The notes under the pieces were generated by a model. That model was not told the DNA's origin and searched no databases. It saw nothing but the letters and a program-made list of their open reading frames with translations. Made by a program: the position numbers and the translations under genes. A stretch of DNA of 64,000 nucleotides, taken from Salipiger sp. CCB-MM3. Its GTDB lineage: Bacteria; Pseudomonadota; Alphaproteobacteria; Rhodobacterales; Rhodobacteraceae. How positions within the stretch are numbered: the first letter of the stretch is position 1; each line of letters begins with the position of its first letter. Shown piece after piece: positions 40,043 to 52,189 of the stretch. Location of the stretch: contig NZ_CP014598.1 of NCBI RefSeq assembly GCF_001687105.1, positions 62,001-126,000 of the forward strand, written 5' to 3'.

Positions 40043-40774
40043 GTGAGCATCTTCAGACTACTGGTCGTCGACGACGATTCCGAGATGCGCATGATGATGA
40101 CCCAGTTCCTGCAAAAGCAGGGCTTCATCGCGCTTGGCGCGCAGTCCATGGCCGAGATCGCCACCGCGATGGACGCGGGCCGGATCGATCTCATCTTGCT
40201 CGACGTGATGCTCGGCGACGAAAGCGGCATCGAGATCTGCGCGCGCCTGCGCCGCGAGCAGGATGTGCCGATCATCATGGTCTCGGCGCTGTCGGCGGAT
40301 CACCAGCGCATGGCAGGCTATGAGGTCGGCGCCGACGATTATATCGCCAAACCGTTCAACCCCGAGCTGCTGGTCGCCCGCGTGCGCGCCGTGCTGGCGC
40401 GCGCCCGGCGCTCGGCCTCGCTGGTGCACCGGCGGCGCACCCAGACCTTCCGCTTTGCGGGTTGGCGCTATGACGCAAAGCGGGACGAGGTGATCTCGCC
40501 CGAGGGGTTCCAAGTGGCGCTGTCGCGGCGCGAGACGATGCTGCTGCAGGCGCTTCTGGCCAATCCCTTCATCCCGCTCACCCGCGACGAGATCGCCGCC
40601 GCGCTCGACGTCACCGGCGAGGGGGCCGAAGAGACGCAGGGCCGCGCCATCGACGTTCTGGTGGGGCGCCTGCGTTCGAAGATCGAGAAGTCGCCCAAAG
40701 ACCCGCAGATGCTGCGCACCGAACGCGGTGTCGGCTATGTCTTCGCGGTCGACGTGACGACGGAAGAGACGTGA
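40043..40774 (+). CDS. OmpR/PhoB family response regulator
   Basis: 243-residue regulator starting at GTG 40043 with GGAGG upstream. The receiver domain (residues 1-120) has LLVVDDDSEM, phosphoacceptor Asp in LILLDVMLGDESG and the lysine in DYIAKPFNPELL. The C-terminal winged helix (residues ~140-238) shows LSRRETMLLQALLANPFIPLTRDEIAAAL and RTERGVGYVFAVD. It overlaps the kinase gene by four bases (GTGA). It probably controls the divergent glucose-type importer. Confidence 0.95.
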   Translation: MSIFRLLVVDDDSEMRMMMTQFLQKQGFIALGAQSMAEIATAMDAGRIDLILLDVMLGDESGIEICARLRREQDVPIIMVSALSADHQRMAGYEVGADDYIAKPFNPELLVARVRAVLARARRSASLVHRRRTQTFRFAGWRYDAKRDEVISPEGFQVALSRRETMLLQALLANPFIPLTRDEIAAALDVTGEGAEETQGRAIDVLVGRLRSKIEKSPKDPQMLRTERGVGYVFAVDVTTEET

Positions 40775-42213
40775 GCCGCCGCAGCCTCTCTCTGCGCGTC
40801 TCGGGCCTCGTCTTGATGATCGGCGCGGCGCTGGCGGGCATGGTGATCACCGGCATGTGGAGCCTGTCGCAGACCCGCTGGACCAGCCATCTCGACCACG
40901 CCGAGCGGGCCGGGATCCTGCTCCACCACACGCTGACCCGCGGCGCGGCCCCGCCCGAGGGCGTTACCGTCACGCCGCTGGCCGAGATCGACGCCAATGC
41001 CGCCGCGGTCGGTAATTTCTCACTGGTCTCGGGCCTGCCCAAACCGCGCTATGTGACGCTCGCCCCGATCCTGCCCGACGGCACTGGCGGCGAGGGGATC
41101 GAACTGGCGGTGATTTCGGACGGGCTGCAATACCGCGTCGCCGATCTGCCCTCGCGTCCCGGCCAGCGCCCCGAAGAGACGCTGGGCCAGCTCACCCGGT
41201 TGATGGCGCGTTACTGCTCGCACCCGCAGATCATCGCCCGCTCGGGCGAAAGCGGCTGGCAGCGCGTCGAGGCGCCCGGCGTCTGGGGCTGCGAGGCGGC
41301 GCCGCGCGATTTGCGTCTGCCCGCCATCGCGCTGGCACTGATCACCCTTGGCGTGTTCTTCACCCGCGTTACCGGCACCGCTGCGCAATTCTCGGACTTC
41401 GCGCAGGCGCTGGCCACGCGGCGGCGGCTCGGCGGGCCGGAAAGCTATGAGACCGAAGGCCCCGCCGAACTGCGCGCCATCGTCGACGCGGTGAACGCCT
41501 ATCTCGAAGACGAGCGCGAGCAACTGGCGAAACGCGCCGTGGTGCTGTCGGGGGTGAGCCATGACCTCGGCACCCCGGCCACTCGCCTGCGGCTGCGCAG
41601 CGCGCTGATCGAGGACGAGGCGCTGCGCGGCAAATTCGAGGCCGACATCGATAAGATGACCGCGATCATCGAAAGCGCGCTGACCTACACCCGCGCCGAG
41701 CTCAGCGTCGAAGACCCGCGCCAGCTGTCGCTTTCGGCGCTCGTCGAGGCGCTGGTCGACGACTATCAGGACATGGGCCATCCGGTGACCCTCGCCCGTG
41801 TCGAACCGATGGTGCTGCGCGGCGGGCGCTCGCTGTTCTCGGCGCGGCGCGGCGCACAGGTGATCGAGGGCGCGCATCGCATCCTCGTCACCGCCCGGCC
41901 CGTGTCGATCCAGCGCGCGATTTCGAACCTCGTGGACAATGCGCTGAAATACGGGCGCCGGGCAGAGCTGCACCTCGAGGCCACCGCCGACACCGCGACG
42001 ATCATCGTCGAGGATGAAAGCGGCCTGCGCTCCACCGAACAGATCGAGGCGCTCATGGCCCCCTTCCGGCGCGGTGCCAATGCGCGCTCCAGCGACGGCA
42101 CCGGGCTCGGCCTCAGCATCGTGTCGACCATCGCCATGCTGCACGGGGGCACGCTGCGTTTCGAAACCGCGCCCAAAGGGCTGCGCGCGGTGCTGACCAT
42201 CCAGCGCGCCTGA
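40771..42213 (+). CDS. Sensor histidine kinase
   Basis: 480-residue membrane kinase starting at GTG 40771. Membrane segments at ~10-30 and ~183-200 flank a ~150-residue periplasmic sensor with no recognised fold. The H-box is VLSGVSHDLGTPATRLRLR with His 264; the usual RTPL of EnvZ-like kinases reads GTPA here. The N-box is RAISNLVDNALKYG and the G-box GTGLGLSIVSTIA. Partner of the upstream response regulator. Sugar or a periplasmic sugar acid is the likely signal, by analogy with GtrS. Confidence 0.94.
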   Translation: MSRRSLSLRVSGLVLMIGAALAGMVITGMWSLSQTRWTSHLDHAERAGILLHHTLTRGAAPPEGVTVTPLAEIDANAAAVGNFSLVSGLPKPRYVTLAPILPDGTGGEGIELAVISDGLQYRVADLPSRPGQRPEETLGQLTRLMARYCSHPQIIARSGESGWQRVEAPGVWGCEAAPRDLRLPAIALALITLGVFFTRVTGTAAQFSDFAQALATRRRLGGPESYETEGPAELRAIVDAVNAYLEDEREQLAKRAVVLSGVSHDLGTPATRLRLRSALIEDEALRGKFEADIDKMTAIIESALTYTRAELSVEDPRQLSLSALVEALVDDYQDMGHPVTLARVEPMVLRGGRSLFSARRGAQVIEGAHRILVTARPVSIQRAISNLVDNALKYGRRAELHLEATADTATIIVEDESGLRSTEQIEALMAPFRRGANARSSDGTGLGLSIVSTIAMLHGGTLRFETAPKGLRAVLTIQRA

Positions 42214-42448: not shown

Positions 42449-44350
42449 ATGTCAATTTCCCTCACCCTGCGCCGGCTTGCGATCCTTGGGATTCCGGCGC
42501 TCGTGATCGCCTTTTCGTTCCTGCTCTTCGAGGGAAAGACCCAACAGATCGTGCTGGGCATGATGTCCGGCGCGCAGAGCCTTGCGGGGCTGTCCGCCCT
42601 CATCGTGGGGGCACTGGCGCTTGATGTGGCGCTGCCGGTCCCCTCGAGCGTGGTCAATGTCACCGCTGGCACCGTTCTGGGGGTTGCGGGCGGCACGCTG
42701 ACCTGCTGGCTTGGCATGACGCTGAGCTGTCTGCTGGGCTATTGGATCGGCGCCACCGGCGGCACCAGCGCGCTGCGCAGGCTGCTCGGCGCCGAGGAAC
42801 TGGCCCGCTCGACCCGCATGTCGAACCGCTTCGCCTTTGGCTCGCTGCTGCTGCTGCGCGCGGTGCCGGTGCTGGCCGAGACCTCGACCATCGCCGCCGG
42901 GATCGCCCGGCTGCCGCTGCGCCGTTTCCTTGGTGTGGTGGCGCTGGCCAACCTCGGCATCGCCGCCGCCTACGCCACGTTGGGCGCCATGGCCGTCGAG
43001 GCCGACTCCTTCCTGCTCGCGTTCTGCGCCGCGCTGGCCCTGCCGGTGGCGGGCCTCGGCGGGCGGTTGATCTACGCGCAGATGCGCCCCGAGAGCCAGC
43101 CGCTCAGCGGCACGCTCGCCATGGCCGAAGCACCCGATCCCACGCCGATCACCCGTCCGGCGCTGCGCCCCACCGCGCCGCCTCAGGGCACCTCGGTGCT
43201 GCAGCGCTTCAGCGTCGATTACAGCTATCGCGTGGTCTTCACCCGCGGCCTCTTTGCGCCGGGCAACGACACGCTGGGCGAGGTCTTTCGCGAGGCCTCC
43301 GATGGCCGGGCGCAACGCTGCCTCGTCTTCGTCGATGCCGACATGCTGCGCCAGCGCCCCGCGCTGGCAGATGAGATCACCGCCTGTTTCGACCGTCTCG
43401 GCACAGAGGCCACGCTGGCCACCGCGCCGCGTCCGATTACCGGCGGCGAGGATATCAAGGCGGGCTTCGAACAGGTCTTCGAGATCTACCGCCTGATCCT
43501 GCGCCACCGCATCGACCGGCACTGCTACGTGATGGCGATCGGCGGCGGCGCAGTGCTCGACGCGGTGGGCATGGCCACCGCCACCGCTCACCGGGGCATC
43601 CGCCACATCCGCGTGCCCACCACCGTGCTGTCGCAGAACGACAGCGGCGTGGGGGTGAAGAACGCGGTGAACTTCGAGGGCTCGAAGAATTTCGCCGGCA
43701 GCTTCGCGCCGCCTTGGGCGGTGCTCAACGATTTCGACATGCTCGAAACTCTCCCGCCCGCCATCCGCCGCGCCGGTATCTCCGAGGCGGTGAAAGTGGC
43801 GCTGATCCGCGATCCCGAGTTCTTCCTATGGCTGGAGACGAACGCCGAGGCGCTGCGCCGCTTCGAGCCCGCCGCCGAAGAGTATATGATCCGGCGCTCG
43901 GCAGAGCTGCACATGCATCAGATCGCCCATGGCGGCGATCCGTTCGAGCGCGGCTCGGCCCGGCCCTTGGACTTCGGTCACTGGTCGGCGCACAAGCTCG
44001 AGGGGCTGACGCACTACGCGGTCAGTCACGGCGACGCGGTGGCCATGGGCATCGCCCTCGACACCCGCTACTCGGTTCTGGCCGGGCTGCTGCCCGAAGG
44101 CGGAGAAGAGCGCGTGCTGGCGCTGCTGCAGGCGCTTGATCTGCCGGTCTGGCATCCGGCACTGGAACAGCGTGATGCGGGCGGCCAGTTGGAGATTCTC
44201 AACGGCCTTGAGGAATTCCGCGAGCATCTGGGCGGCGAGCTGACCGTCACGCTGCTGCTCGGGCTCGGCACGGGCGTCGAGATGCACGAGATGAAGCCGG
44301 AACTGGTGGCCGAAGCGCTCGGCTGGCTGGCGGCGCAGGGACAGGACTGA
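42449..44350 (+). CDS. eboD: EboD, 3-dehydroquinate-synthase-like, fused to N-terminal DedA/VTT-type membrane domain
   Basis: 633-residue two-domain protein. Residues 1 to ~212 contain about five to six membrane segments with DedA/VTT-like features: LDVALPVPSSVVNVTAGTVLG near 58-78 and LLLLRAVPVLAETSTIAAG near 133-151. After a proline-rich linker (~215-250) residues ~255-633 form an AroB-like domain: NAD site GGGAVLDAVG (365-374), then VPTTVLSQNDSGVGVKNAVN, and metal ligands E446 (SEAVKVALI), H511 (DFGHW) and H527 (SHGDAVAMG). EboD proteins I know of are only the ~390-residue enzyme part, so the fusion is unusual. AAAGGA precedes the ATG; the stop overlaps eboE. Not the housekeeping aroB, given the ebo context. 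Confidence 0.9.
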   Translation: MSISLTLRRLAILGIPALVIAFSFLLFEGKTQQIVLGMMSGAQSLAGLSALIVGALALDVALPVPSSVVNVTAGTVLGVAGGTLTCWLGMTLSCLLGYWIGATGGTSALRRLLGAEELARSTRMSNRFAFGSLLLLRAVPVLAETSTIAAGIARLPLRRFLGVVALANLGIAAAYATLGAMAVEADSFLLAFCAALALPVAGLGGRLIYAQMRPESQPLSGTLAMAEAPDPTPITRPALRPTAPPQGTSVLQRFSVDYSYRVVFTRGLFAPGNDTLGEVFREASDGRAQRCLVFVDADMLRQRPALADEITACFDRLGTEATLATAPRPITGGEDIKAGFEQVFEIYRLILRHRIDRHCYVMAIGGGAVLDAVGMATATAHRGIRHIRVPTTVLSQNDSGVGVKNAVNFEGSKNFAGSFAPPWAVLNDFDMLETLPPAIRRAGISEAVKVALIRDPEFFLWLETNAEALRRFEPAAEEYMIRRSAELHMHQIAHGGDPFERGSARPLDFGHWSAHKLEGLTHYAVSHGDAVAMGIALDTRYSVLAGLLPEGGEERVLALLQALDLPVWHPALEQRDAGGQLEILNGLEEFREHLGGELTVTLLLGLGTGVEMHEMKPELVAEALGWLAAQGQD

Positions 44351-45540
44351 TGCAGCTCGGCAACGGGCTGGGCAGCCTGACGTACTGCCTCAACATCCAT
44401 CCCACAGAGACTTGGGAGGAATGTTCCGCCGCGCTCACCGGTCCGCTGCTGGCGGTAAAGGAAGAGCTGAGCCCCGACGCGCCCTTCGCCGTGGGTCTGC
44501 GCCTTTCGGCCAAGGCCTTGGAAGGGTTGGACAAGGGCGGACGGCGTGCCGCGCTGCGCGAGTTTCTGACCCGCCACGACCTGATCCCGCTGACGATGAA
44601 CGGCTTTCCCTATGGCCCCTTCCACGGCACCCGCGTGAAGGAGCAGGTCTATCAGCCCGACTGGCGGACCGAAGAGCGGCTGGCCTACACCAACCGGCTG
44701 ACCGAACTGATGGCCGAACTGGCCGAGCCGGGTGCCAACGTCAGCCTCAGCACCGTGCCGGGCACCTTCCGTACCCTCGCTGGCGGTGCTGAGGCCGAGA
44801 TGGCCGAGCACTATCTGCGCGCCGCGGCGCATTGCCTCTCGGTGCGCGAACACACCGGGGTGGCGGTCGCGCTGGCGATCGAGCCCGAGCCTTTCTGCTT
44901 TCTGGAGACCATCGCCGGCAGCGTCGATTTCTTTGAAAACTGGCTCTACTCCTCCGCCGCTGTCGCCCGCTTTGCAGAGCTTACCGGGCTGAAGGGCGAG
45001 ACCGCCGAAGAGGCACTGCGCCGCCATCTGGGCCTGTGCTACGACGTCTGCCACGCGGCGGTGGAATATGAGGATGCGGCAGGCAGCCTCGATGCGCTGA
45101 AAACCGCGGGCATTCCGATCCATAAGTTGCAGCTCAGCTCGGCGCTGCGGGCAGCCGAGGTCTCGCCCAAGGTGCGCGAGGCGTTGCAACCCTTCTCGGA
45201 ACCCACCTACCTGCATCAGGTGCTGACACGGCGCGGCGACGGGCCGATCACCGCCTATTCCGATCTGCCAGAGGCACTGGCGCGCGGCGCCGAGGCGGAT
45301 GGCGAGGAGTGGCGCATCCACTTCCATGTACCGGTGTTTCTGGCCTCGCTTGGGCTCTTCGACAGCACACAGGAGTTTCTGAAGGAAATCCTCGACCTGC
45401 ACCGCGCCGCGCCGATCTCGCCGCATCTCGAGGTCGAGACCTACACTTGGGACGTTCTGCCGCCCGAGTTGCGCACCTCCAGCGTCGATGCCGCCATTGC
45501 GCGAGAGTTGCGCTGGGTTCTGGAAAGGCTGGGCCAATGA
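44350..45540 (+). CDS. eboE: EboE, TIM-barrel sugar-phosphate-isomerase-like protein
   Basis: 396-residue protein with the xylose-isomerase/AP-endonuclease-like barrel. Characteristic stretches are LGSLTYCLNIHPTETWEEC at the N-terminus, MNGFPYGPFHGTRVKEQVYQPDW, VALAIEPEPFCFLET, LGLCYDVCHAAVEYED with possible metal ligands, IHFHVPVFL and the C-terminal LEVETYTWDVLPPEL. These fit the 'metabolite traffic protein' EboE family. It starts in the TGATG overlap with eboD and ends in an ATGA overlap with eboC. The reaction is unknown. Confidence 0.9.
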   Translation: MQLGNGLGSLTYCLNIHPTETWEECSAALTGPLLAVKEELSPDAPFAVGLRLSAKALEGLDKGGRRAALREFLTRHDLIPLTMNGFPYGPFHGTRVKEQVYQPDWRTEERLAYTNRLTELMAELAEPGANVSLSTVPGTFRTLAGGAEAEMAEHYLRAAAHCLSVREHTGVAVALAIEPEPFCFLETIAGSVDFFENWLYSSAAVARFAELTGLKGETAEEALRRHLGLCYDVCHAAVEYEDAAGSLDALKTAGIPIHKLQLSSALRAAEVSPKVREALQPFSEPTYLHQVLTRRGDGPITAYSDLPEALARGAEADGEEWRIHFHVPVFLASLGLFDSTQEFLKEILDLHRAAPISPHLEVETYTWDVLPPELRTSSVDAAIARELRWVLERLGQ

Positions 45541-46394
45541 TCCGCACCGCTCTGGAACTGGGCCGCGTGTCCAACCTGCCGACGGTCTGGACAAATGCCA
45601 TGGCGGGGGCGCTGCTGGCGCTCTCGGCGGCCCCGGGCACGGCGTTCTGGCCAATCGTGCTGAGCGCACTGGCGCTGACCCTCTTTTACGTGGGCGGCAT
45701 GTGGCTCAACGATGCTTTCGACGCCGAGCATGACCGCACGCAAAAGGCCGACCGCCCCATCCCCCGCGGCGACATCCGTCAGGGCGATGTTTTCGTCGGC
45801 GGTTTCGTCATGCTGGGCACCGGCATTTTGCTGACCCTGCTGCTCGGAGGCTGGGCGCTGGTCTCGGCGGTGCTGCTGAGCATCAGCATCTTCCTCTACG
45901 ACTGGCTGCACAAACGCACTGCGCTGGCGCCGGTGATCATGGGGGTCACCCGGTTCTTTTGCTATGCGCTGGCTGCCTTCGGCGCGACGGGCAGCTTTCC
46001 GGGCGTGGCGATCTGGGGCGCGCTGGGGCTGCTGGCCTATGTGGTCGGCCTCACCTACGCCGCCAAACAAGAGGCCTACGACCGGATCGAGCGCGCGTGG
46101 CCGCTGGCGGTGATGGCTTTTCCCTGCCTGCTGGTGCTGATCTTCAGCTGGGGCAGCGCGCTGGCGCTGCTGATTGCGCTGGGGTTCTTCGCCGCCACCG
46201 GGCTGGCGCTGCACTATCTCTTTCGCCGGGCAAAGGGCGACGTGCCGAAGGCCGTCACCCTGCTGATTGCCGCCATCTCGCTCTATGACGCCGCGCTGAT
46301 CGCCGGGGTCCACGGAGGATGGATCCCGGCGCTGCTGACGGTTCTCGGCTTTGGCCTCACCCGCGCGCTGCAGCGGGTCATTGCGGGGACTTAG
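45537..46394 (+). CDS. eboC: EboC, UbiA-family prenyltransferase-like membrane protein
   Basis: 285-residue integral membrane protein with about eight or nine helices. The first aspartate-rich motif, NDAFDAEHDRTQKADRPIPRG (N58, D59, D62, D66), binds Mg-diphosphate in UbiA enzymes; a second conserved area is GLTYAAKQEAYDRIERAWPL. ATG 45537 overlaps the eboE stop (ATGA); the same frame is open further upstream inside eboE but that is out of context. It shares its last four bases with the converging eboF. In the ebo cluster it is thought to modify or help move a metabolite across the membrane. Confidence 0.9.
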   Translation: MIRTALELGRVSNLPTVWTNAMAGALLALSAAPGTAFWPIVLSALALTLFYVGGMWLNDAFDAEHDRTQKADRPIPRGDIRQGDVFVGGFVMLGTGILLTLLLGGWALVSAVLLSISIFLYDWLHKRTALAPVIMGVTRFFCYALAAFGATGSFPGVAIWGALGLLAYVVGLTYAAKQEAYDRIERAWPLAVMAFPCLLVLIFSWGSALALLIALGFFAATGLALHYLFRRAKGDVPKAVTLLIAAISLYDAALIAGVHGGWIPALLTVLGFGLTRALQRVIAGT

Positions 46395-47776
46395 TCGAAG
46401 ATATGGCTCAGCGTCAGCGCCTTGAAATCCACCGCCCGGACCGATCCTTCCGGCAGCAGGCCCGCCTCGGAGGAGATCACCAGCGGCCCGTCGCCGGGAT
46501 CATCGGTGAGCCGCCCGTGGCTGCCCTTCACCAGATCGGTCCGCGAGGGAGAGATCACGTCGAGAAGCTGCCGAAAGCCCATCTTGCGCTTGGCCAGTTT
46601 CCAGCCCGCCGCCAGCTTGGGAAACCGCAGGTTGGGATCGAGGAACAGCTCGACCGGGTCATAGCCGGGCTTGCGGTGAATATCGACGGTGGGGGCAAAG
46701 TCCGGGGCCTTGTCGTCGTCCAGCCAGTAGTAATAGCTGAACCAGCGGTCGGGCTTCGAGACGGCCACAAGCTCGCCCGAGCGCGGATGGTCGAGGCCAT
46801 TCTGGCGCTTGCCGTCCTCGTCCCAGACCGTCTCGACCCCATCGAGCCCCTCGACCAGCGCCTTCACCTCGGCCAGACGCGCAGCGTCATTGACGTAGAT
46901 ATGCGCAAGCTGGTGGTCCGACAGAGCAAAGGCCGCCGAAGCGCCTGCGTCGAGAATCTCGCGCCCATGTTCCTCGGGGCGCACGGCGATCAGCCCGGCT
47001 TTGCGCAGGGCGCGGTTGATGTGGATCGCCTCGCTGACCGGGGTGATGCCGTACTCCGACACGACCAGCACCCGGCGTCCCTCGGCATCCGCCGCGGCGA
47101 CCAGTTTGCCGACCAGCGCATCGATGTCCTTGAGGGAGCTCTGCACCTCGGGATGCGCCAGATCGGGGCCGAACTTCTGCAGGTCGTAATCCAGATGCGG
47201 CAGATAGGTCAGGGTCAGCGTGGGCTGCCGCGTCTGCATCACATGCAGCGTCGCCTCGGTGATCCACGCCGAGGAGGTGATATCCGCCGTCGGCCCCCAG
47301 AAGGTGAAAAGCGGGAAGCGCCCCAGTTTGGCATCCAACTCGTCATGCAGCTCGGGCGGATAGGCGTAATGGTCGGGGATCTTGCGCCCGTCCGCCGGAT
47401 ACATCGGGCGCGGCGTCGCCGAGTAATCGGCGGTGGCGTACATGTTGTACCACCAGAACATCTTGGCGCAGGTAAAACCCGGATCGCGCGCCTTCCCCGC
47501 GTCCCAGATTTTCTCTCCCTCGATCAGCGAGTTGGGCTGCCGCCACAGCAGCACCTCCTTGAGATCACGGAACAGCCAGCCATTGGCCACGGCTCCATGG
47601 CCCGAGGGCGGCAAGCCGGTCGCCAGCGTTGCCTGCACGGTGCAGGTGACCGCCGGTGTGACCGTCTCCAGCGGGCGCATTCCGCCGCGTTCGGCAAGGG
47701 CTGCAAGGTGGGGGGTATGAGCTCCGACAAGTTTGGGTGTCAGGCCGACGACAAGAATAACAAGGGTCGGTTTCAT
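46391..47776 (-). CDS. eboF: EboF, alkaline phosphatase-superfamily nucleotide pyrophosphatase/phosphodiesterase-like
   Basis: 461-residue protein of the alkaline phosphatase superfamily (phosphodiesterase branch). The nucleophile region is ETVTPAVTCTVQATLATGLPPSGHG with the Thr after PAV; metal ligands are expected in YLPHLDYDLQKFGP, VVSEYGITPVSEAIHINR and the C-terminal KGSHGRLTDDP. ATG 47776 lacks a strong ribosome site. It is the only ebo gene on the minus strand here, converging on eboC and divergent from eboA. No signal peptide is obvious beyond the short hydrophobic VILVVGL start. Confidence 0.87.
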   Translation of the reverse strand: MKPTLVILVVGLTPKLVGAHTPHLAALAERGGMRPLETVTPAVTCTVQATLATGLPPSGHGAVANGWLFRDLKEVLLWRQPNSLIEGEKIWDAGKARDPGFTCAKMFWWYNMYATADYSATPRPMYPADGRKIPDHYAYPPELHDELDAKLGRFPLFTFWGPTADITSSAWITEATLHVMQTRQPTLTLTYLPHLDYDLQKFGPDLAHPEVQSSLKDIDALVGKLVAAADAEGRRVLVVSEYGITPVSEAIHINRALRKAGLIAVRPEEHGREILDAGASAAFALSDHQLAHIYVNDAARLAEVKALVEGLDGVETVWDEDGKRQNGLDHPRSGELVAVSKPDRWFSYYYWLDDDKAPDFAPTVDIHRKPGYDPVELFLDPNLRFPKLAAGWKLAKRKMGFRQLLDVISPSRTDLVKGSHGRLTDDPGDGPLVISSEAGLLPEGSVRAVDFKALTLSHIFD

Positions 47777-47884
47777 GCTGTGAACCAAAATCCATTCGAA
47801 AAAACAAGAAGAATATGGGCGCAACTATGACGCGCCGCCATCCCCTCAGTCCAGTGTTTCATTGATTATTCGGGAGAGAGTTTG

Positions 47885-48628
47885 ATGACCGATCCGAAAG
47901 ACCTTTTGTATGGATGGATACGTGAGCGCGCCGGGGACGAAAGGCCTTGGCTCGACGCGCAATTGGCGCAGCTCGCCGCGCCGGACGCGACCGAGCGCGA
48001 CCTGCATATGTACCTCGGCTTTGCGCCGCGCAGGCTCGGCAAGGCCGATCTCGCGCTGACGCCGGACGATCTGGCGCAGGCCGATGCCGCGCGCTCTGGC
48101 TGGGACCCCTCGGGCTGGAGCATCGACGGTGCCGCGCGCATTCTGGGGCTGCTGACCTACAGCGGCACCCGTCCCTTCGCCGAGACCTTCAAGGACCTGC
48201 GCCGCACGTCGGACGCTGCCGAGATGATCGCGCTCTATCGCGGCCTGCCGCTCTACCCCGCGCCCGAGAGCCTGCATTTCGAGGTTGGCGAGGGGCTGCG
48301 CTCGAACCTCAAGCCGGTGTTCGAGGCGATCGCCCACAACAACCCCTACCCGCGAGATCATTTCGACGAGCACCGCTGGAACCACATGGTCCTGAAGGCG
48401 CTGTTCATCGGGGCCGAGCTTGGCCCGATCACCGGGCTTGCGGCCCGCGCCAACCCCGAACTGGCGCGCATCCTCGTGCAATATGCGCGCGAACGCTGGG
48501 CCGCCGGACGGCCCGTCATGCCCGAGCTCTGGCCGCTCGTGGCGCCCTTTGCCGAAACCCCTGAAATCCGTGCCGAGCTCGACCGGGCCCGCGCCGAAGG
48601 CCGTACATTTGAGGATCTTGTATCATGA
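47885..48628 (+). CDS. eboA: EboA domain protein
   Basis: 247-residue soluble, mostly helical protein with no enzyme motif. The EboA family pattern is visible: LHMYLGFAPRRLGKADLALT, then YRGLPLYPAPESLHFEVGEGLRSN, FEAIAHNNPYPRDHFDEHRWNHMVLKALFIG and ARILVQYARERWAAGRPVMPELW. GGGAGAG precedes ATG 47885. Its stop overlaps the eboB start (ATGA). The function is unknown; in cyanobacterial clusters it accompanies EboB-F. Confidence 0.88.
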   Translation: MTDPKDLLYGWIRERAGDERPWLDAQLAQLAAPDATERDLHMYLGFAPRRLGKADLALTPDDLAQADAARSGWDPSGWSIDGAARILGLLTYSGTRPFAETFKDLRRTSDAAEMIALYRGLPLYPAPESLHFEVGEGLRSNLKPVFEAIAHNNPYPRDHFDEHRWNHMVLKALFIGAELGPITGLAARANPELARILVQYARERWAAGRPVMPELWPLVAPFAETPEIRAELDRARAEGRTFEDLVS

Positions 48629-49548
48629 TGCTGATTGACCCCCACGCCCATATGATCTCGCGCACCACCGACGACTATCAGGCGATGGCCGCCGCCGGTG
48701 TCGTGGCGCTCATCGAGCCCGCCTTCTGGGTTGGCCAGCCGCGCACTTTCGTGGGCACCTACGTAGATTACCTCTCGACCATCGTCGGCTGGGAGCGGTT
48801 CCGCGCCGGGCAGTTCGGCATCCGCCACTATTGCACCATCGGGCTCAACTCGAAGGAGGCCAACAACGAGGAACTGGCCGAGGGCGTGATGGAATGGCTG
48901 CCGCGCTTCGCCCTCAAGGAAGGCGTCGTGGCGATCGGCGAGATCGGCTATGACGAGCAGACCGAGCTCGAGGACAAATACTTCCGCCTGCAACTGTCGC
49001 TGGCCAAGGAACTGGACCTGCCGGTGATGGTGCACACGCCGCACCGCGACAAGAAGCAGGGCACCACCCGCTCCATGGATGTCTGCGAAGAGATGGGGCT
49101 CGACCCGTCGATGGTGATCATCGACCACAACAACGAGGAAACCGTCGGCGAGGTGCTGCAGCGCGGCTATTGGGCGGGCTTCTCGATCTACCCCTCGACC
49201 AAGATGGGCAACGCGCGGATGGTCGAACTGCTCAAGCAATACGGGTCCGAACGCATCATCGTCGACAGCGCCTGCGACTGGGGCATTTCCGACTGCCTCG
49301 GCGTCGCCAAAACCGCGCAGCTTGCGCTGCAGAGCGGCGTTCCCGAAAGCACCGTGCGCGCGGTCTGCTATGGCAATGCGCTGGCGGCCTATGGCCAAAG
49401 CGGGCAGATGAAGGAAAGCGACTGGCTCGAACCTCCGGCGATCGACCAGCGCACGCTTTACGAAGGCAATTCGATCCTGCGCGGCGGTCGCGAGCCGGTG
49501 ATCGAAGAGCCGGGCGCGCAGCGCCGTGCCGGACTGACCATCGAGTAA
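48625..49548 (+). CDS. eboB: EboB, TatD-like metal-dependent hydrolase
   Basis: 307-residue amidohydrolase-superfamily TIM barrel. Metal ligands: DPHAHM (H7, H9), Glu in VAIGEIGYDEQ, His in LPVMVHTPHRDKK, His in VIIDHNNEETVG and Asp in IVDSACDWGISDC. This is the EboB branch of TatD-related enzymes. ATG 48625 or 48628 (MLIDPHAHM) overlaps the eboA stop. A hairpin terminator follows at 49557. Confidence 0.9.
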   Translation: MMLIDPHAHMISRTTDDYQAMAAAGVVALIEPAFWVGQPRTFVGTYVDYLSTIVGWERFRAGQFGIRHYCTIGLNSKEANNEELAEGVMEWLPRFALKEGVVAIGEIGYDEQTELEDKYFRLQLSLAKELDLPVMVHTPHRDKKQGTTRSMDVCEEMGLDPSMVIIDHNNEETVGEVLQRGYWAGFSIYPSTKMGNARMVELLKQYGSERIIVDSACDWGISDCLGVAKTAQLALQSGVPESTVRAVCYGNALAAYGQSGQMKESDWLEPPAIDQRTLYEGNSILRGGREPVIEEPGAQRRAGLTIE

Positions 49549-49582: not shown

Positions 49583-49700
49583 ACCTCACAAATTCCACAC
49601 GAAAATTTGCCCGTTCGCTCGCGCGCACTACTCCTTGTTGTGACGCGGTCGCGAGCTTCCCGCAGCGCGGCCCGCCGCGAAATTGAACGGGAACACTCTC

Positions 49701-50045
49701 ATGCCCTATCGAACCGGCCTGACCGTCATAATGGTCTCGGCACTGGTCGCCATCGGATGCGGCCTTTACGCCTATTTCGTCCCGCTCACCGGTGTCACCG
49801 GTGTCTGGGGTCCCCTCGCCGCCGCCTTCGGTGCGCTCTGCCTGCTGATCGGCGGTGCGCTGATGGTCAAGGCGCGCAGCCGCGGCGCACGGGTCATTCT
49901 GATGCTGCTGCTGGCCATCGGAATCGTGCTGACCGCCTTCGCCGCCTTCCTGATGCACCAGTGGGTGATGCTGGCCGCGCTCGGCGTCTGCGCCTTGGGC
50001 TGGATCGCGGCACTCTCCGGTCCCGAAGAAGGAGCTTACGCATGA
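49701..50045 (+). CDS. Small membrane subunit resembling the N-terminal domain of membrane glucose dehydrogenase
   Basis: 114-residue protein with four or five hydrophobic segments (LTVIMVSALVAIGCGLYAYF; WGPLAAAFGALCLLIGGALM; VILMLLLAIGIVLTAFAAFL; WVMLAALGVCALGWIAAL). This matches in size and layout the quinone-reactive membrane part of membrane-bound PQQ glucose dehydrogenase (Gcd), normally fused to the enzyme. ATG 49701 has GGGA upstream. Its end overlaps the PQQ dehydrogenase start by four bases, so the two are coupled and likely form one complex. Confidence 0.78.
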   Translation: MPYRTGLTVIMVSALVAIGCGLYAYFVPLTGVTGVWGPLAAAFGALCLLIGGALMVKARSRGARVILMLLLAIGIVLTAFAAFLMHQWVMLAALGVCALGWIAALSGPEEGAYA

Positions 50046-52189
50046 CCCATCTGCTCCGCAGCACCGCCCTTCTTGCCCTGCTTGCCGGGCCTGCCCTCGC
50101 GCAGCAGGCCGACACGCCGACCCCGCCTGCCGCGCCCGAAAGCGCTGCGCCGGAGACCGACGCCCCTGAAACCCCGCCCCCCGGCGCAACCGCCACTGAG
50201 GGCGGCGAAACACCCGCCGAAGTCGAAGAGCCGGAAAGCTCTGAAGACACCGCCTCGCAGGACGACAGCGAGCCCGAACCCAACGCCGAAACGGCGGTGG
50301 TCGAAGTGCCCGCCGCGCGCCCCTCGTCGGATGCCAAAGTGCCTAGCCCCGGCACCGGCTGGCCCAGCTTCCACGGTCAGGTCTCTGGCGCGAAATATTC
50401 GCCGCTGACCCAGATCACCCCCGAGAACGTCGGCGACATGGAACTGGCATGGCGGGTCGAGACCGGCGACGTCTCGGACGGCTCGGGCGATCTGCCTGCC
50501 ACCGTCTGGTCGGCCACGCCGATCTACGCCAACGACATGCTCTACATCGGCACGCCCTTTTATCGCGTGCTGGCGCTCGACCCGGCGACCGGCGAAGAGA
50601 TCTGGTCCTACGACACCCAATCCACGCTCGAGGCGCTCACCCAGCCCGCCCTGAAAAACCGCGGCGTGGCCTATTGGGAAGCCGCGAACCCCACCGAGGG
50701 CGAGGCGTGCCAAAAGATCGTCTATCTCGGCACGATGGACGCGCGGCTCTTTGCCATGGACGCCGACACCGGCGCGCTCTGCGAGGATTTCGCCGATGGC
50801 GGCGTGCTCGACGTCAACCAGTGGAACACGGTCAACGACCGCTGGCCGCTGTCGCTGCTGCAGCCGCCGACCATCGTCGGCGATCACGTGATCATCGGCT
50901 GGGCCGGCAACGACTGGGACTGGGCCGAAGCGCCTCCGGGCTCGGTCTTCTCGGTGAACGCGCAGACCGGCGAGCTTGAGTGGACCTTCGACACCATCCC
51001 CGAGGAGATCCGCGAAAAGACCGGCACCGCCAACGTCTGGACCGCGATGAGCGCCGACGAGGAACGCGGCATCGTCTATCTGCCCGTGGCCTCGCCCTCG
51101 CCCAACTACTGGGGCGGCAACCGCACCGAGGACATCCCCTATGCCACCTCGACCACCGCGCTCGACGTGGACACCGGCGAGGTGATCTGGTCGCGGCAAT
51201 GGGTGCATCACGACATCTGGGACTATGACATCAACTCCGCCCCCACCCTGATGGACATCACGGTGAACGGGCAAGAAATCCCGGCGCTGATGCAGGCCAC
51301 CAAGATGGGCTTTCTCTTCGTGGTGAACCGCGAGACCGGCGAGGACATCTGGCCGATCGAAGAACGCCCTGTCCCCGCGGGGACAATCGAGAGCGAGCGT
51401 TACGCGCCGACCCAGCCCTTCCCCACGACGCCCGCGCCGCTGCTCGACCAGTCGAAGATGCCCGACGTGTGGAACATCGCCGACATCGCCTCTTTCGGGG
51501 AATGCTCGGACCTGTGGAGCAAGCTGATCTACGACGGCATGTATACCGCGCCCACCACCGAGGGCGAAGGCGCAGGCGCCTATCCGAACTCGGCGGGCGT
51601 CGTGCAATGGGGCGGCGTCGGCTATGACCCCGAAAATCAGATCGCCGTGGTGAACCTGTCGCATGTGGTGCAGTACATTCAGCTCTACGAGCGCGAGGAA
51701 TACGACGAGATCAACGGCGAGGCCGGGGTCGGCGAAAGCGGCTTCCACCCGCAGACCGGCGCGCCCTACGGCATGTCGCTGAAGACCGCGATGAACCGCT
51801 GGGGCATGCCCTGCTGGGAGCCTCCGTTCGGCGAGATCATGGCGATCGACATGACCACCGGCGAGCCGCTCTGGCGCAAACCCTTCGGCATGTCGCAGCG
51901 CTACGGCTTCTACATGCCCGAAGCATGGGGCTCGCCCACCATCGGCGGCCCGGCGATCACCGCGGGCGGGCTGATCTTCATCGGCGCCACGATGGACGGC
52001 ATGGTCCGCGCCTATGACCTCAAAAGCGGCGAAGAGCTGTGGAGCGACCTGACAGAGGCGCCCTCGGTGTCGAACCCGGCGATCTACGAGCATGACGGCG
52101 CCGAATATGTGGCCTTTGTCTCGGGCGGCAACTCGATCCTGAAGCCCTCGGTCGGCGACATGGTCTCGGTCTACCGCCTGCCGCGCTGA
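50042..52189 (+). CDS. PQQ-dependent dehydrogenase, membrane-bound glucose/quinate dehydrogenase type
   Basis: 715-residue periplasmic quinoprotein. Signal peptide MTHLLRSTALLALLAGPALA, then a Pro/Glu/Ala-rich linker (~22-100), then the eight-bladed propeller beginning GTGWPSFHGQVSGAKYSPLTQITPENV. PQQ features include LGTMDARLFAMDADTGALC, WVHHDIWDYDINSAPTLMDI (typical of glucose/quinate dehydrogenases), QATKMGFLFVVNRETGE and GGLIFIGATMDGMVRAYDLKSGEELW. The enzyme would oxidise a sugar or cyclic polyol in the periplasm and pass electrons to ubiquinone through the small upstream membrane protein. No pqq biosynthesis gene is in the window. Confidence 0.9.
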   Translation: MTHLLRSTALLALLAGPALAQQADTPTPPAAPESAAPETDAPETPPPGATATEGGETPAEVEEPESSEDTASQDDSEPEPNAETAVVEVPAARPSSDAKVPSPGTGWPSFHGQVSGAKYSPLTQITPENVGDMELAWRVETGDVSDGSGDLPATVWSATPIYANDMLYIGTPFYRVLALDPATGEEIWSYDTQSTLEALTQPALKNRGVAYWEAANPTEGEACQKIVYLGTMDARLFAMDADTGALCEDFADGGVLDVNQWNTVNDRWPLSLLQPPTIVGDHVIIGWAGNDWDWAEAPPGSVFSVNAQTGELEWTFDTIPEEIREKTGTANVWTAMSADEERGIVYLPVASPSPNYWGGNRTEDIPYATSTTALDVDTGEVIWSRQWVHHDIWDYDINSAPTLMDITVNGQEIPALMQATKMGFLFVVNRETGEDIWPIEERPVPAGTIESERYAPTQPFPTTPAPLLDQSKMPDVWNIADIASFGECSDLWSKLIYDGMYTAPTTEGEGAGAYPNSAGVVQWGGVGYDPENQIAVVNLSHVVQYIQLYEREEYDEINGEAGVGESGFHPQTGAPYGMSLKTAMNRWGMPCWEPPFGEIMAIDMTTGEPLWRKPFGMSQRYGFYMPEAWGSPTIGGPAITAGGLIFIGATMDGMVRAYDLKSGEELWSDLTEAPSVSNPAIYEHDGAEYVAFVSGGNSILKPSVGDMVSVYRLPR

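What the first reader, a model, noticed from the sequence alone, without database searches (positions are those of the whole stretch)
42449..49548. Complete ebo cluster in an alphaproteobacterium, with eboF inverted
All six ebo genes (D, E, C rightward; F leftward; A, B rightward) are present within 7.1 kb with tight stop/start overlaps. Established knowledge: in Nostoc punctiforme the ebo cluster is required for a scytonemin precursor to reach the periplasm, and a related cluster in Pseudomonas fluorescens is linked to repelling nematodes; the metabolite moved in heterotrophs is unknown. No scytonemin-type biosynthesis genes are seen here, so this copy must act on something else.
Basis: partly seen in the sequence, partly recalled or inferred. 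Interest (0 to 1): 0.85.

Follow-up and report, generated by a model that had tools for sequence, protein, structure and literature searches.

The report
Ebo cluster with DedA-fused EboD
This bacterium carries a known but poorly understood six-gene "ebo" cluster, and one of its enzymes is fused to a membrane domain from a family that moves lipids across membranes, which gives a concrete candidate for how the cluster's product crosses the cell membrane.

Summary
In detail: all six ebo genes lie at 42449-49548, order D-E-C-(F inverted)-A-B. The cluster as such is not new, and the inverted eboF is common: 19 of 70 ebo loci examined share this exact order, and eboF opposes eboE in 41 of 69.

(1) The 633-aa eboD product is a fusion of a VTT/DedA membrane domain and the sugar-phosphate-cyclase domain. 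The fusion recurs in 5 of 20 genomes of the genus and in 22 of 24 EboD-bearing genomes of a Pseudomonas-like genus. In six relatives a separate VTT gene follows eboB by 5-32 bp. (2) The genome has a second complete ebo cluster with unfused EboD; from inside eboE to eboB the copies are nearly identical. (3) Other ebo loci often carry dehydrogenase plus cytochrome c, or IPP isomerase-like genes.

Best reading: ebo makes a prenylated polar molecule, and here a DedA-type domain helps move it across the membrane (inferred, about 0.45). Against it: 56 of 70 loci have no VTT nearby, 7 of 11 EboE-positive alphaproteobacterial genomes show no close ebo-type VTT, and two Pseudomonas-like genomes lack the domain.

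The parts
42449..44350 (+). eboD: fusion of an N-terminal VTT/DedA membrane domain (res ~1-211), a low-confidence linker (~212-258) and a sugar phosphate cyclase (DHQ-synthase-like) domain (~259-633)
   Evidence: PF09335 64-180 (67.9 bits), PF01761 330-437, PF24621 443-572; model; fusion in the 16 proteins, the window's own included
42449..43081 (+). VTT/DedA-family membrane domain of EboD (part of the eboD ORF)
   Evidence: D59..LPVP and R137..P140...E144 shared with VTT genes next to eboB
44350..45540 (+). eboE: xylose-isomerase-like TIM barrel, metabolite traffic protein EboE
   Evidence: NF035939 432.8 bits, cut-off 250
45537..46394 (+). eboC: UbiA-type prenyltransferase with N58-D59-x2-D62-x3-D66
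   Evidence: PF01040 62.7 bits; NF035940 92.7, below cut-off 250; conserved sites
46391..47776 (-). eboF: PF01663 (alkaline-phosphatase superfamily) protein with a non-canonical metal site, convergent with eboC
   Evidence: PF01663 211.2 bits; V10-G11-L12 and S240-E241-Y242-G243 each at >=90% of 71 aligned EboF
47777..47884 (.). 108-bp gap between the divergent eboF and eboA starts, a likely shared regulatory region (inferred; no sigma-70 consensus found)
47885..48628 (+). eboA: EboA-domain protein
   Evidence: NF035938 154.4 bits, cut-off 50; NF035937 214.9, cut-off 320
48625..49548 (+). eboB: TatD-type metal-dependent hydrolase, putative metal ligands present
   Evidence: PF01026 61.0 bits; H7 H9 E106 H137 H168 D218 at >=90% of 66 aligned EboB (ligand roles recalled)
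45250..49480 (.). tract about 93-100% identical (100-bp blocks) to the second ebo cluster of the same genome (L012); the eboD cyclase part and 5' eboE upstream only about 53-83%
   Evidence: sliding identity

Best explanation
This is an ebo cassette of the DEC-F(inv)-AB type in a Salipiger/Alloyangia-like bacterium. Most likely mechanism: the EboD cyclase domain makes a polyhydroxylated ring (cyclitol) from a sugar phosphate in the cytoplasm. EboE and EboB act on it (order unknown). EboC attaches a prenyl chain to a polar or aromatic acceptor. The resulting amphiphile is moved to the outer leaflet with help from a dedicated DedA-type translocase, which is fused to EboD here and is a separate gene beside eboB in some relatives. 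In relatives with a GSDH/cytochrome c pair the exposed head group may then be oxidised in the periplasm. Shown: gene content, fusion, linkage, partial co-occurrence, conserved catalytic positions of D, C, E and B. Inferred: every substrate, the translocation step and its direction.
For: Fusion found in 16 proteins of a capped search, the window's own included, in 5 of 20 same-genus genomes and in 22 of 24 EboD-bearing genomes of a Pseudomonas-like genus. Six loci have a separate VTT gene 5-32 bp after eboB; 14 of 70 ebo loci hold a VTT within 3 kb, against 1.27 expected from the density of all VTTs in this genome. Fused and eboB-linked VTTs share D..[LI]P[VI]P and R..P...E, absent from the five own-genome VTTs that could be aligned (the genome has eight, one of them the window's). 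In the 385-genome class sample the only VTTs at >=150 bits to the ebo-type profile lie in 4 genomes, all EboE-positive (11 of 385 are); in two of them the gene is away from ebo. D59, R137, E144 and N168 are invariant in 15 fused proteins that differ down to 45% identity. IPP isomerase-like genes at 10 of 70 loci and GSDH-like at 24 of 70, with cytochrome c at 21 of those 24, fit prenyl supply and periplasmic oxidation. EboC homologue Ubi-297 farnesylates quinolines (PMC9235831). Nostoc ebo mutants keep the scytonemin monomer in the cytoplasm (PMC6282210; eboD was not analysed there).
Against: No product is known. 56 of 70 loci have no VTT within 3 kb; clusters of the same order in Halomonas, Salinicola, Roseivivax and Ketogulonicigenium are among them. 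7 of the 11 EboE-positive genomes of the class sample have no VTT at >=150 bits. In 12 further ebo-positive genomes, which I picked because no VTT lay near ebo, none reaches 150 bits (best 102, Hyphomicrobium). Two Pseudomonas-like genomes lack the VTT part of EboD, one also most of eboC, without a replacement. The second cluster in this genome has an unfused EboD. Apart from the window's own genome, whose VTT was in the query, the co-occurrence rests on three genomes of one family (f131), and that search scored at most 7 candidates a genome. Fused and eboB-linked VTTs are different sub-lineages, joined only at 81/67 support. The VTT part of the model is of low to medium confidence. The window has no GSDH/cytochrome c pair; its neighbouring PQQ dehydrogenase is not conserved beside ebo in the genus.
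Confidence: 0.45

Rival explanations
1. The VTT domain is a membrane anchor that holds the cyclase next to EboC; it moves nothing.
For: Fusion would look the same; the linker (~212-258) is long and low in confidence; many clusters do without VTT.
Against: An anchor need not keep charged residues of both hairpin regions, yet D59, R137, E144 and N168 are invariant across the 15 fused proteins aligned. Linked but unfused VTT genes next to eboB cannot anchor EboD covalently. In two genomes an ebo-type VTT is present but not near ebo.
Confidence: 0.25
2. The VTT domain is an ordinary undecaprenyl-phosphate flippase that helps carrier recycling when ebo competes for prenyl lipids.
For: The UptA model matches weakly (32.8 bits, cut-off 250). 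Klicki et al. suggested a tie between ebo and capsule export.
Against: Known UndP flippases have two conserved basic residues in the second hairpin, shown to be essential (PMC10127716). Ebo-type VTTs keep one Arg, lack the second and have a Glu one position later.
Confidence: 0.12
3. Ebo makes a diffusible secondary metabolite or cofactor rather than a carrier lipid; export uses other systems, and the VTT association is a lineage-specific side matter.
For: Yurchenko 2016 favoured synthesis of an isoprenoid-cyclitol compound. Most ebo loci lack a nearby VTT (56 of 70). Accessory genes differ by lineage.
Against: Fusion or linkage in several branches (5 changes on the EboD tree), and Nostoc mutants with a transport phenotype.
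Confidence: 0.18

Closest known systems
ebo operon of eustigmatophyte plastids, Bacteroidota and Cyanobacteria (Yurchenko 2016, PMC5133447; Klicki 2018, PMC6282210)
   Same: All six gene families; catalytic positions of EboB, C, D and E conserved at >=90% across the aligned rows
   Different: Order DEC-F(inv)-AB instead of ABCDEF; EboD fused to a VTT domain; second cluster in the genome. The 2016 paper mentions another fusion (EboA to a xylose-isomerase-like protein in Actinobacteria)
Pseudomonas-type ebo clusters; EDB cluster of P. fluorescens NZI7 (Burlinson 2013, known here only through Klicki's text)
   Same: Full ebo set; in the Pseudomonas-like genus sampled, 22 of 24 EboD are also VTT fusions, and one listed fused protein is named 'Pseudomonas fluorescens group'
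   Different: Gene order D-C-A-B-E-F in the fused loci mapped (L145, L190, L191), another EboD branch; NZI7 itself was not examined
DedA family, UndP flippases (UptA, YqjA/YghB; COG0586; PMC10127716)
   Same: PF09335 core; an acidic residue at the first hairpin and the first Arg of the second hairpin retained
   Different: Second Arg missing, Glu one position later; fused to a sugar phosphate cyclase. That paper names fusions to rhodanese and PAP2 domains
Ubi-297 prenyltransferase (EboC homologue; PMC9235831)
   Same: UbiA family with Asp-rich motif, ebo context
   Different: From Flavobacteria; substrate of the window's EboC unknown; window EboC is below the NF035940 cut-off

Membership tests
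ebo cluster | EboE above its curated cut-off | tested here: met
   432.8 bits against 250
ebo cluster | all six gene families A-F physically clustered | tested here: met
ebo cluster | EboC above NF035940 and EboA above NF035937 cut-offs | tested here: not met
   92.7/250 and 214.9/320; the EboA_domain cut-off is met (154.4/50). The models may be tuned to other lineages (inference); both proteins align with ebo-locus homologues
ebo cluster | role in moving a metabolite out of the cytoplasm | not testable with these tools
   needs mutants and mass spectrometry
EboD / sugar phosphate cyclase | zinc ligands and main active-site residues | tested here: met
   E446, H511, H527, K404, K449, R505, H515 at >=90% of 73 rows; roles of the residues recalled from DHQ synthase; alignments
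EboD / sugar phosphate cyclase | substrate sedoheptulose 7-phosphate rather than the DHQS substrate | tested here: inconclusive
   EboD has D-F-G-H as the cyclase 4p53 does (a valiolone-type synthase, recalled), while the DHQS shown have N-L-G-H; no assay
VTT/DedA family (PF09335) | profile above the gathering score | tested here: met
   67.9 bits against 33.9
UndP flippases (COG0586/UptA) | two basic residues in the second re-entrant hairpin | tested here: not met
   R137 kept, second Arg absent, E144 one position on
UndP flippases (COG0586/UptA) | lipid-flipping activity | not testable with these tools
   needs a complementation or flipping assay
PF01663 two-metal phosphodiesterases (EboF) | canonical Asp in the first strand and Asp-His pair | tested here: not met
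   V10 and E241-Y242 at >=90% of 71 EboF; phosphonoacetate hydrolase shows D-H where EboF shows E-Y. The full ligand set is recalled, not computed

The most novel reading that the evidence does not exclude
A dedicated DedA lineage, with the second phosphate-binding Arg lost and a Glu beside it, is the lipid translocase of the ebo system. It was recruited more than once, as a gene beside eboB and as a fusion to EboD, and it carries a prenylated polyol rather than undecaprenyl phosphate across the membrane. That would be the missing transporter of ebo metabolite traffic in part of the proteobacteria, including Pseudomonas clusters of the kind linked to nematode repellence.
Probability: 0.3. Interest if true: 0.8.

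Novelty: new variant of a known kind. Interest (0 to 1): 0.52.

Why it matters
The ebo genes tested in Nostoc are needed to get the scytonemin monomer into the periplasm, but no transporter is recognised among them; the published proposal borrows a capsule ABC permease (PMC6282210). A physically fused or adjacent DedA-type domain gives a direct, deletable candidate. Database names hide it: the fused proteins that carry a name are called '3-dehydroquinate synthase'. A library search for papers holding both 'DedA' and 'dehydroquinate synthase' listed 2 papers, unrelated by title and abstract. The words DedA, flippase, SNARE and fusion do not occur in the main texts of Yurchenko 2016 and Klicki 2018; supplements were not looked at.

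Tried and rejected
PQQ dehydrogenase just downstream (50042-52189, same strand) as a functional partner: rejected as unsupported. None of nine flanking window proteins has a homologue (E <= 1e-10) in the 16-20 kb read at the four same-genus ebo loci, L012, L036 and L115; one ABC permease matched at 1e-5.

The eboF inversion as a special feature: rejected.

A single origin of the fusion: not shown. Five changes on the EboD tree when all rows are scored; gain and loss cannot be told apart.

VTT as a universal ebo component: rejected.

The AlphaFold model is good for the cyclase domain only; no fold search was run. PDB holds no sequence relative of the ebo-type VTT at E <= 1.

The promoter scan found nothing; 2 terminator-like sites against 4.8 in shuffles. 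A RepC (PF03428) was found on contig C5 only, so C3 and C4 (316 and 274 kb) are not shown to be plasmids. No search for scy genes in the genome was made.

Rows dropped and limits: of 101 loci mapped, 31 with fewer than four ebo genes were left out of the counts (some are contig ends or lone EboE homologues). L014, L140 and L141 were left out as duplicates of L042, L055 and L071. 80 of the 101 came from one scan that kept the best 80 of 578 relatives of an alphaproteobacterial EboE alignment, so the sample is biased. L038 (VTT just beyond 3 kb), L066 (about 5 kb away) and L143 (three ebo genes) are not in the 14. P0008 of the 16 fused proteins was left out of alignment A3. Two of the seven other own-genome VTTs (L018, L023) gave no row. 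The first VTT model used rows that looked wrongly extracted (L018, L020, L022); it was replaced. Neighbour families were named from ORF clusters, and only some members were checked by Pfam: GSDH three, cytochrome c two, TMEM220 one, ferritin-like one. IDI is my reading of a NUDIX protein (L053 gave PF00293). F10B gave no Pfam family. Signal peptides were judged by eye.
Full report
OBSERVATION. The six ORFs reported at 42449-49548 are real and open. Junctions are tight: D/E, E/C and A/B overlap by 1-4 nt, eboC and eboF converge with a 4-nt overlap, and eboF and eboA diverge from a 108-bp gap. Pfam and NCBIfam place them as a DHQ-synthase-like protein, EboE (432.8 bits, cut-off 250), UbiA, PF01663, EboA domain (154.4, cut-off 50) and TatD. 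The EboC and EboA_family models are not met at their cut-offs; alignment with other ebo loci and the shared gene order decide the case. The host is a 5.52-Mb genome in 7 contigs.

HOW RARE AND HOW ORDINARY. EboE occurs in 4 of 149 genomes sampled from the family, 11 of 385 from the class and 3 of 398 from the phylum, the window's genome counted each time. Of 101 loci mapped, 70 had at least four ebo genes; 19 of these have exactly the order D-E-C-F(inv)-A-B, including the two clusters of this genome and four same-genus ones, and eboF lies opposite to eboE in 41 of the 69 that hold eboF. Most of these loci were drawn by similarity to alphaproteobacterial EboE, so the shares are not those of bacteria at large. 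The inversion is ordinary in this group. Yurchenko 2016 (PMC5133447; sections 12 and 16 and searched passages seen) already reports variant orders and reversed genes, and Yurchenko 2018 (PMC6092422; searched passages seen) reports ebo in the alphaproteobacterium Phycorickettsia.

The 633-aa eboD product has a VTT/DedA domain at 64-180 (PF09335, 67.9 bits) ahead of the cyclase domains. A database search limited to residues 1-245, which scored 7997 candidates, found 16 proteins at E <= 0.01, the window's own included, all with PF09335 plus PF01761 (15 also with PF24621); six bear names of Rhodobacterales, one of Pseudomonas tohonis, the rest no name. In the genus, 5 of 20 genomes carry the fused form. 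In the Pseudomonas-like genus of G659, 24 of 199 genomes have a match at E <= 1e-60, 22 of them over the full fused length and two over the cyclase part only. A search with that protein's first 225 residues gave 251 proteins; of the 120 listed, 119 carry all three domains, one named for the Pseudomonas fluorescens group. The model shows a helical N-part to about 211, a linker with low pLDDT to about 258 and a confident cyclase domain; the membrane part is of low to medium confidence.

LINKAGE AND SIGNATURE. In L013, L015, L034, L035, L037 and L045 a separate VTT ORF follows eboB by 5-32 bp on the same strand. In all, 14 of 70 loci have a VTT (>=100 bits) within 3 kb of the cluster, 7 fused and 7 separate. 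The density of all VTTs in this genome (8 in 5.52 Mb) predicts 1.27 in the 879 kb examined; relatedness of the loci makes the nominal probability meaningless, but the excess is large. Fused and linked VTTs share an Asp before [LI]P[VI]P and the pattern R-x-x-P-x-x-x-E; the five own-genome VTTs that could be aligned lack the pair. In UndP flippases two basic residues of the second hairpin are conserved and essential (PMC10127716; outline and section 4 part 1 seen); here the first is kept, the second is missing and a Glu stands one position on. Five non-ebo VTTs of lower score (77-107 bits) have the Glu but not the [LI]P[VI]P, so the Glu alone is not diagnostic. In the 385-genome class sample, matches at >=150 bits occur in 4 genomes, all among the 11 EboE-positive ones; the next genome scores 107.6 and is not among the 11. 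Limits: one of the four is the window's genome, whose VTT was in the query; the other three belong to one family; at most 7 candidates were scored per genome; and 7 of the 11 EboE-positive genomes have no such VTT. In two of the four the VTT is away from ebo (358 kb off, or on another contig).

TREES. On the EboD tree the fused proteins fall into several places, 5 changes in all, with the Pseudomonas pair on a long branch of its own. The unfused second copy of this genome (L012) groups with six fused Salipiger-type EboD at 100/100; the six fused alone have 97/78. On the VTT tree the fused ones and two VTTs of L043 form one group (100/100), the eboB-linked and f131 ones another (98/98), and both join only at 81/67 together with the five lower-scoring VTTs and that of L066. 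So two related DedA sub-lineages are tied to ebo; one recruitment is not excluded and not shown.

SECOND CLUSTER. Contig C3 carries a complete ebo cluster (L012 8544-15029) in the same order with an unfused EboD. In 100-bp blocks DNA identity is about 53-83% through the eboD cyclase part and 5' eboE (one block at the D/E junction is mostly gap), 93-100% from about window 45265 inside eboE, and ends near 49480 at the end of eboB. EboC, F, A and B are 98-99.6% identical between the copies, but 81-97% to other species of the genus. A recent conversion or exchange between the two clusters explains this best (inferred); the genome keeps two different EboD proteins over a nearly identical C-F-A-B set.

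CATALYTIC SITES. Conserved at 90% or more across the aligned ebo loci are the putative TatD ligands of EboB (66 rows), the Asp-rich motif of EboC (72), the zinc and lysine/histidine/arginine positions of EboD (73) and acidic/histidine positions of EboE (101) (roles recalled). EboD shares D-F-G-H with the cyclase 4p53, where the DHQ synthases shown have N-L-G-H. EboF is different: Val stands where this superfamily usually has a metal-binding Asp, and Glu-Tyr where it has Asp-His, each at >=90% of 71 rows (ligand roles recalled). A standard two-metal phosphodiesterase role for EboF is doubtful.

NEIGHBOURS OF OTHER CLUSTERS. Within 3 kb of the 70 clusters, GSDH-like proteins (PF07995 in the three tested; N-termini look like signal peptides by eye) occur at 24, with a cytochrome c at 21 of those 24; IPP-isomerase-like NUDIX proteins at 10; TMEM220-like small membrane proteins at 14; ferritin-like PF12902-type proteins at 5. 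These suggest prenyl supply and periplasmic oxidation as recurrent partners. None was found beside the window's cluster, and its flanking genes are not found at the same-genus loci read, so the six-gene cassette with the fused EboD appears to move as a unit (inference).

MECHANISM. I favour synthesis of a prenylated polar compound and its movement across the inner membrane with a dedicated DedA-type domain. Shown: the parts, their conservation, their linkage. Inferred: substrates, order and translocation. The strongest points against it: 56 of 70 loci have no VTT nearby, among them same-order clusters in Halomonas, Salinicola, Roseivivax and Ketogulonicigenium; 12 ebo-positive genomes that I picked for having no VTT near ebo have none at >=150 bits anywhere (best 102); and two Pseudomonas-like genomes have an EboD that keeps the N-terminal stub of the fused form but not the VTT part, one of them with eboC reduced to its two ends, without a replacement VTT (best 34-39 bits). 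The domain may thus be an optional aid, or those clusters may be decaying. In the Nostoc study eboD itself was not analysed.

LITERATURE. Seen: PMC5133447 (passages, sections 12 and 16), PMC6282210 (outline, discussion part 1, passages), PMC6092422 (passages), PMC9235831 (part 1 of 4, passages), PMC10127716 (outline, section 4 part 1). Burlinson 2013 is not held and is known here only through Klicki's text. The listings (30 of 37; 30 of 64; 2 of 2; 10 of 10; 10 of 33) show no paper that by title or abstract ties DedA/VTT to ebo; most subscription papers and all preprints are outside that library.

VERDICT. A correct observation of a known kind of cluster, with a testable variant that I did not find described in the texts searched: a DedA-EboD fusion. 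Membership in the ebo family about 0.97; mechanism about 0.45; interest 0.52.

Noticed in passing
L012 8544-15029 (second cluster, contig C3 of the same genome): A second complete ebo cluster with unfused EboD; a near-identical tract from inside eboE to the end of eboB, divergent upstream, unrelated downstream.
   Followed up: yes
L188 7568-8806; L189 7320-8758: Two Pseudomonas-like genomes whose EboD keeps the fused N-terminal stub but lacks the VTT part; in L189 eboC is reduced to its two ends.
   Followed up: partly
window 46391-47776 and EboF family: EboF has Val for the usual first metal-binding Asp and Glu-Tyr for Asp-His at >=90% of 71 rows; it may not be a normal phosphodiesterase.
   Followed up: partly
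L013 1256-3408 and 5840-7162; L034; L053; L138 and others: GSDH-like dehydrogenase with cytochrome c beside ebo at 21 of 70 loci (GSDH at 24).
   Followed up: partly
L052, L053, L060, L063, L068, L071, L075, L138, L139, L142: IPP-isomerase-like NUDIX gene beside ebo at 10 of 70 loci, hinting at dedicated prenyl supply.
   Followed up: partly
L036 5191-8090; L043; L058; L076; L092; L145: Ferritin-like PF12902-type protein and/or a large protein without Pfam match (F10B) near eboD or eboF in several proteobacteria; resemblance to violacein-type enzymes is a recollection only.
   Followed up: partly
window 49683-52189: Small hydrophobic ORF and a 715-aa PQQ dehydrogenase just downstream of eboB on the same strand; not found beside ebo in the genus.
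   Followed up: yes
L116 9009-9856 (Ketogulonicigenium vulgare plasmid): eboC is annotated as two overlapping CDS, possibly a frameshifted gene; the ebo order matches the window.
   Followed up: no
window 40043-42213: Response regulator and histidine kinase directly upstream of eboD; no homologue of either in the stretches read at the same-genus ebo loci.
   Followed up: partly
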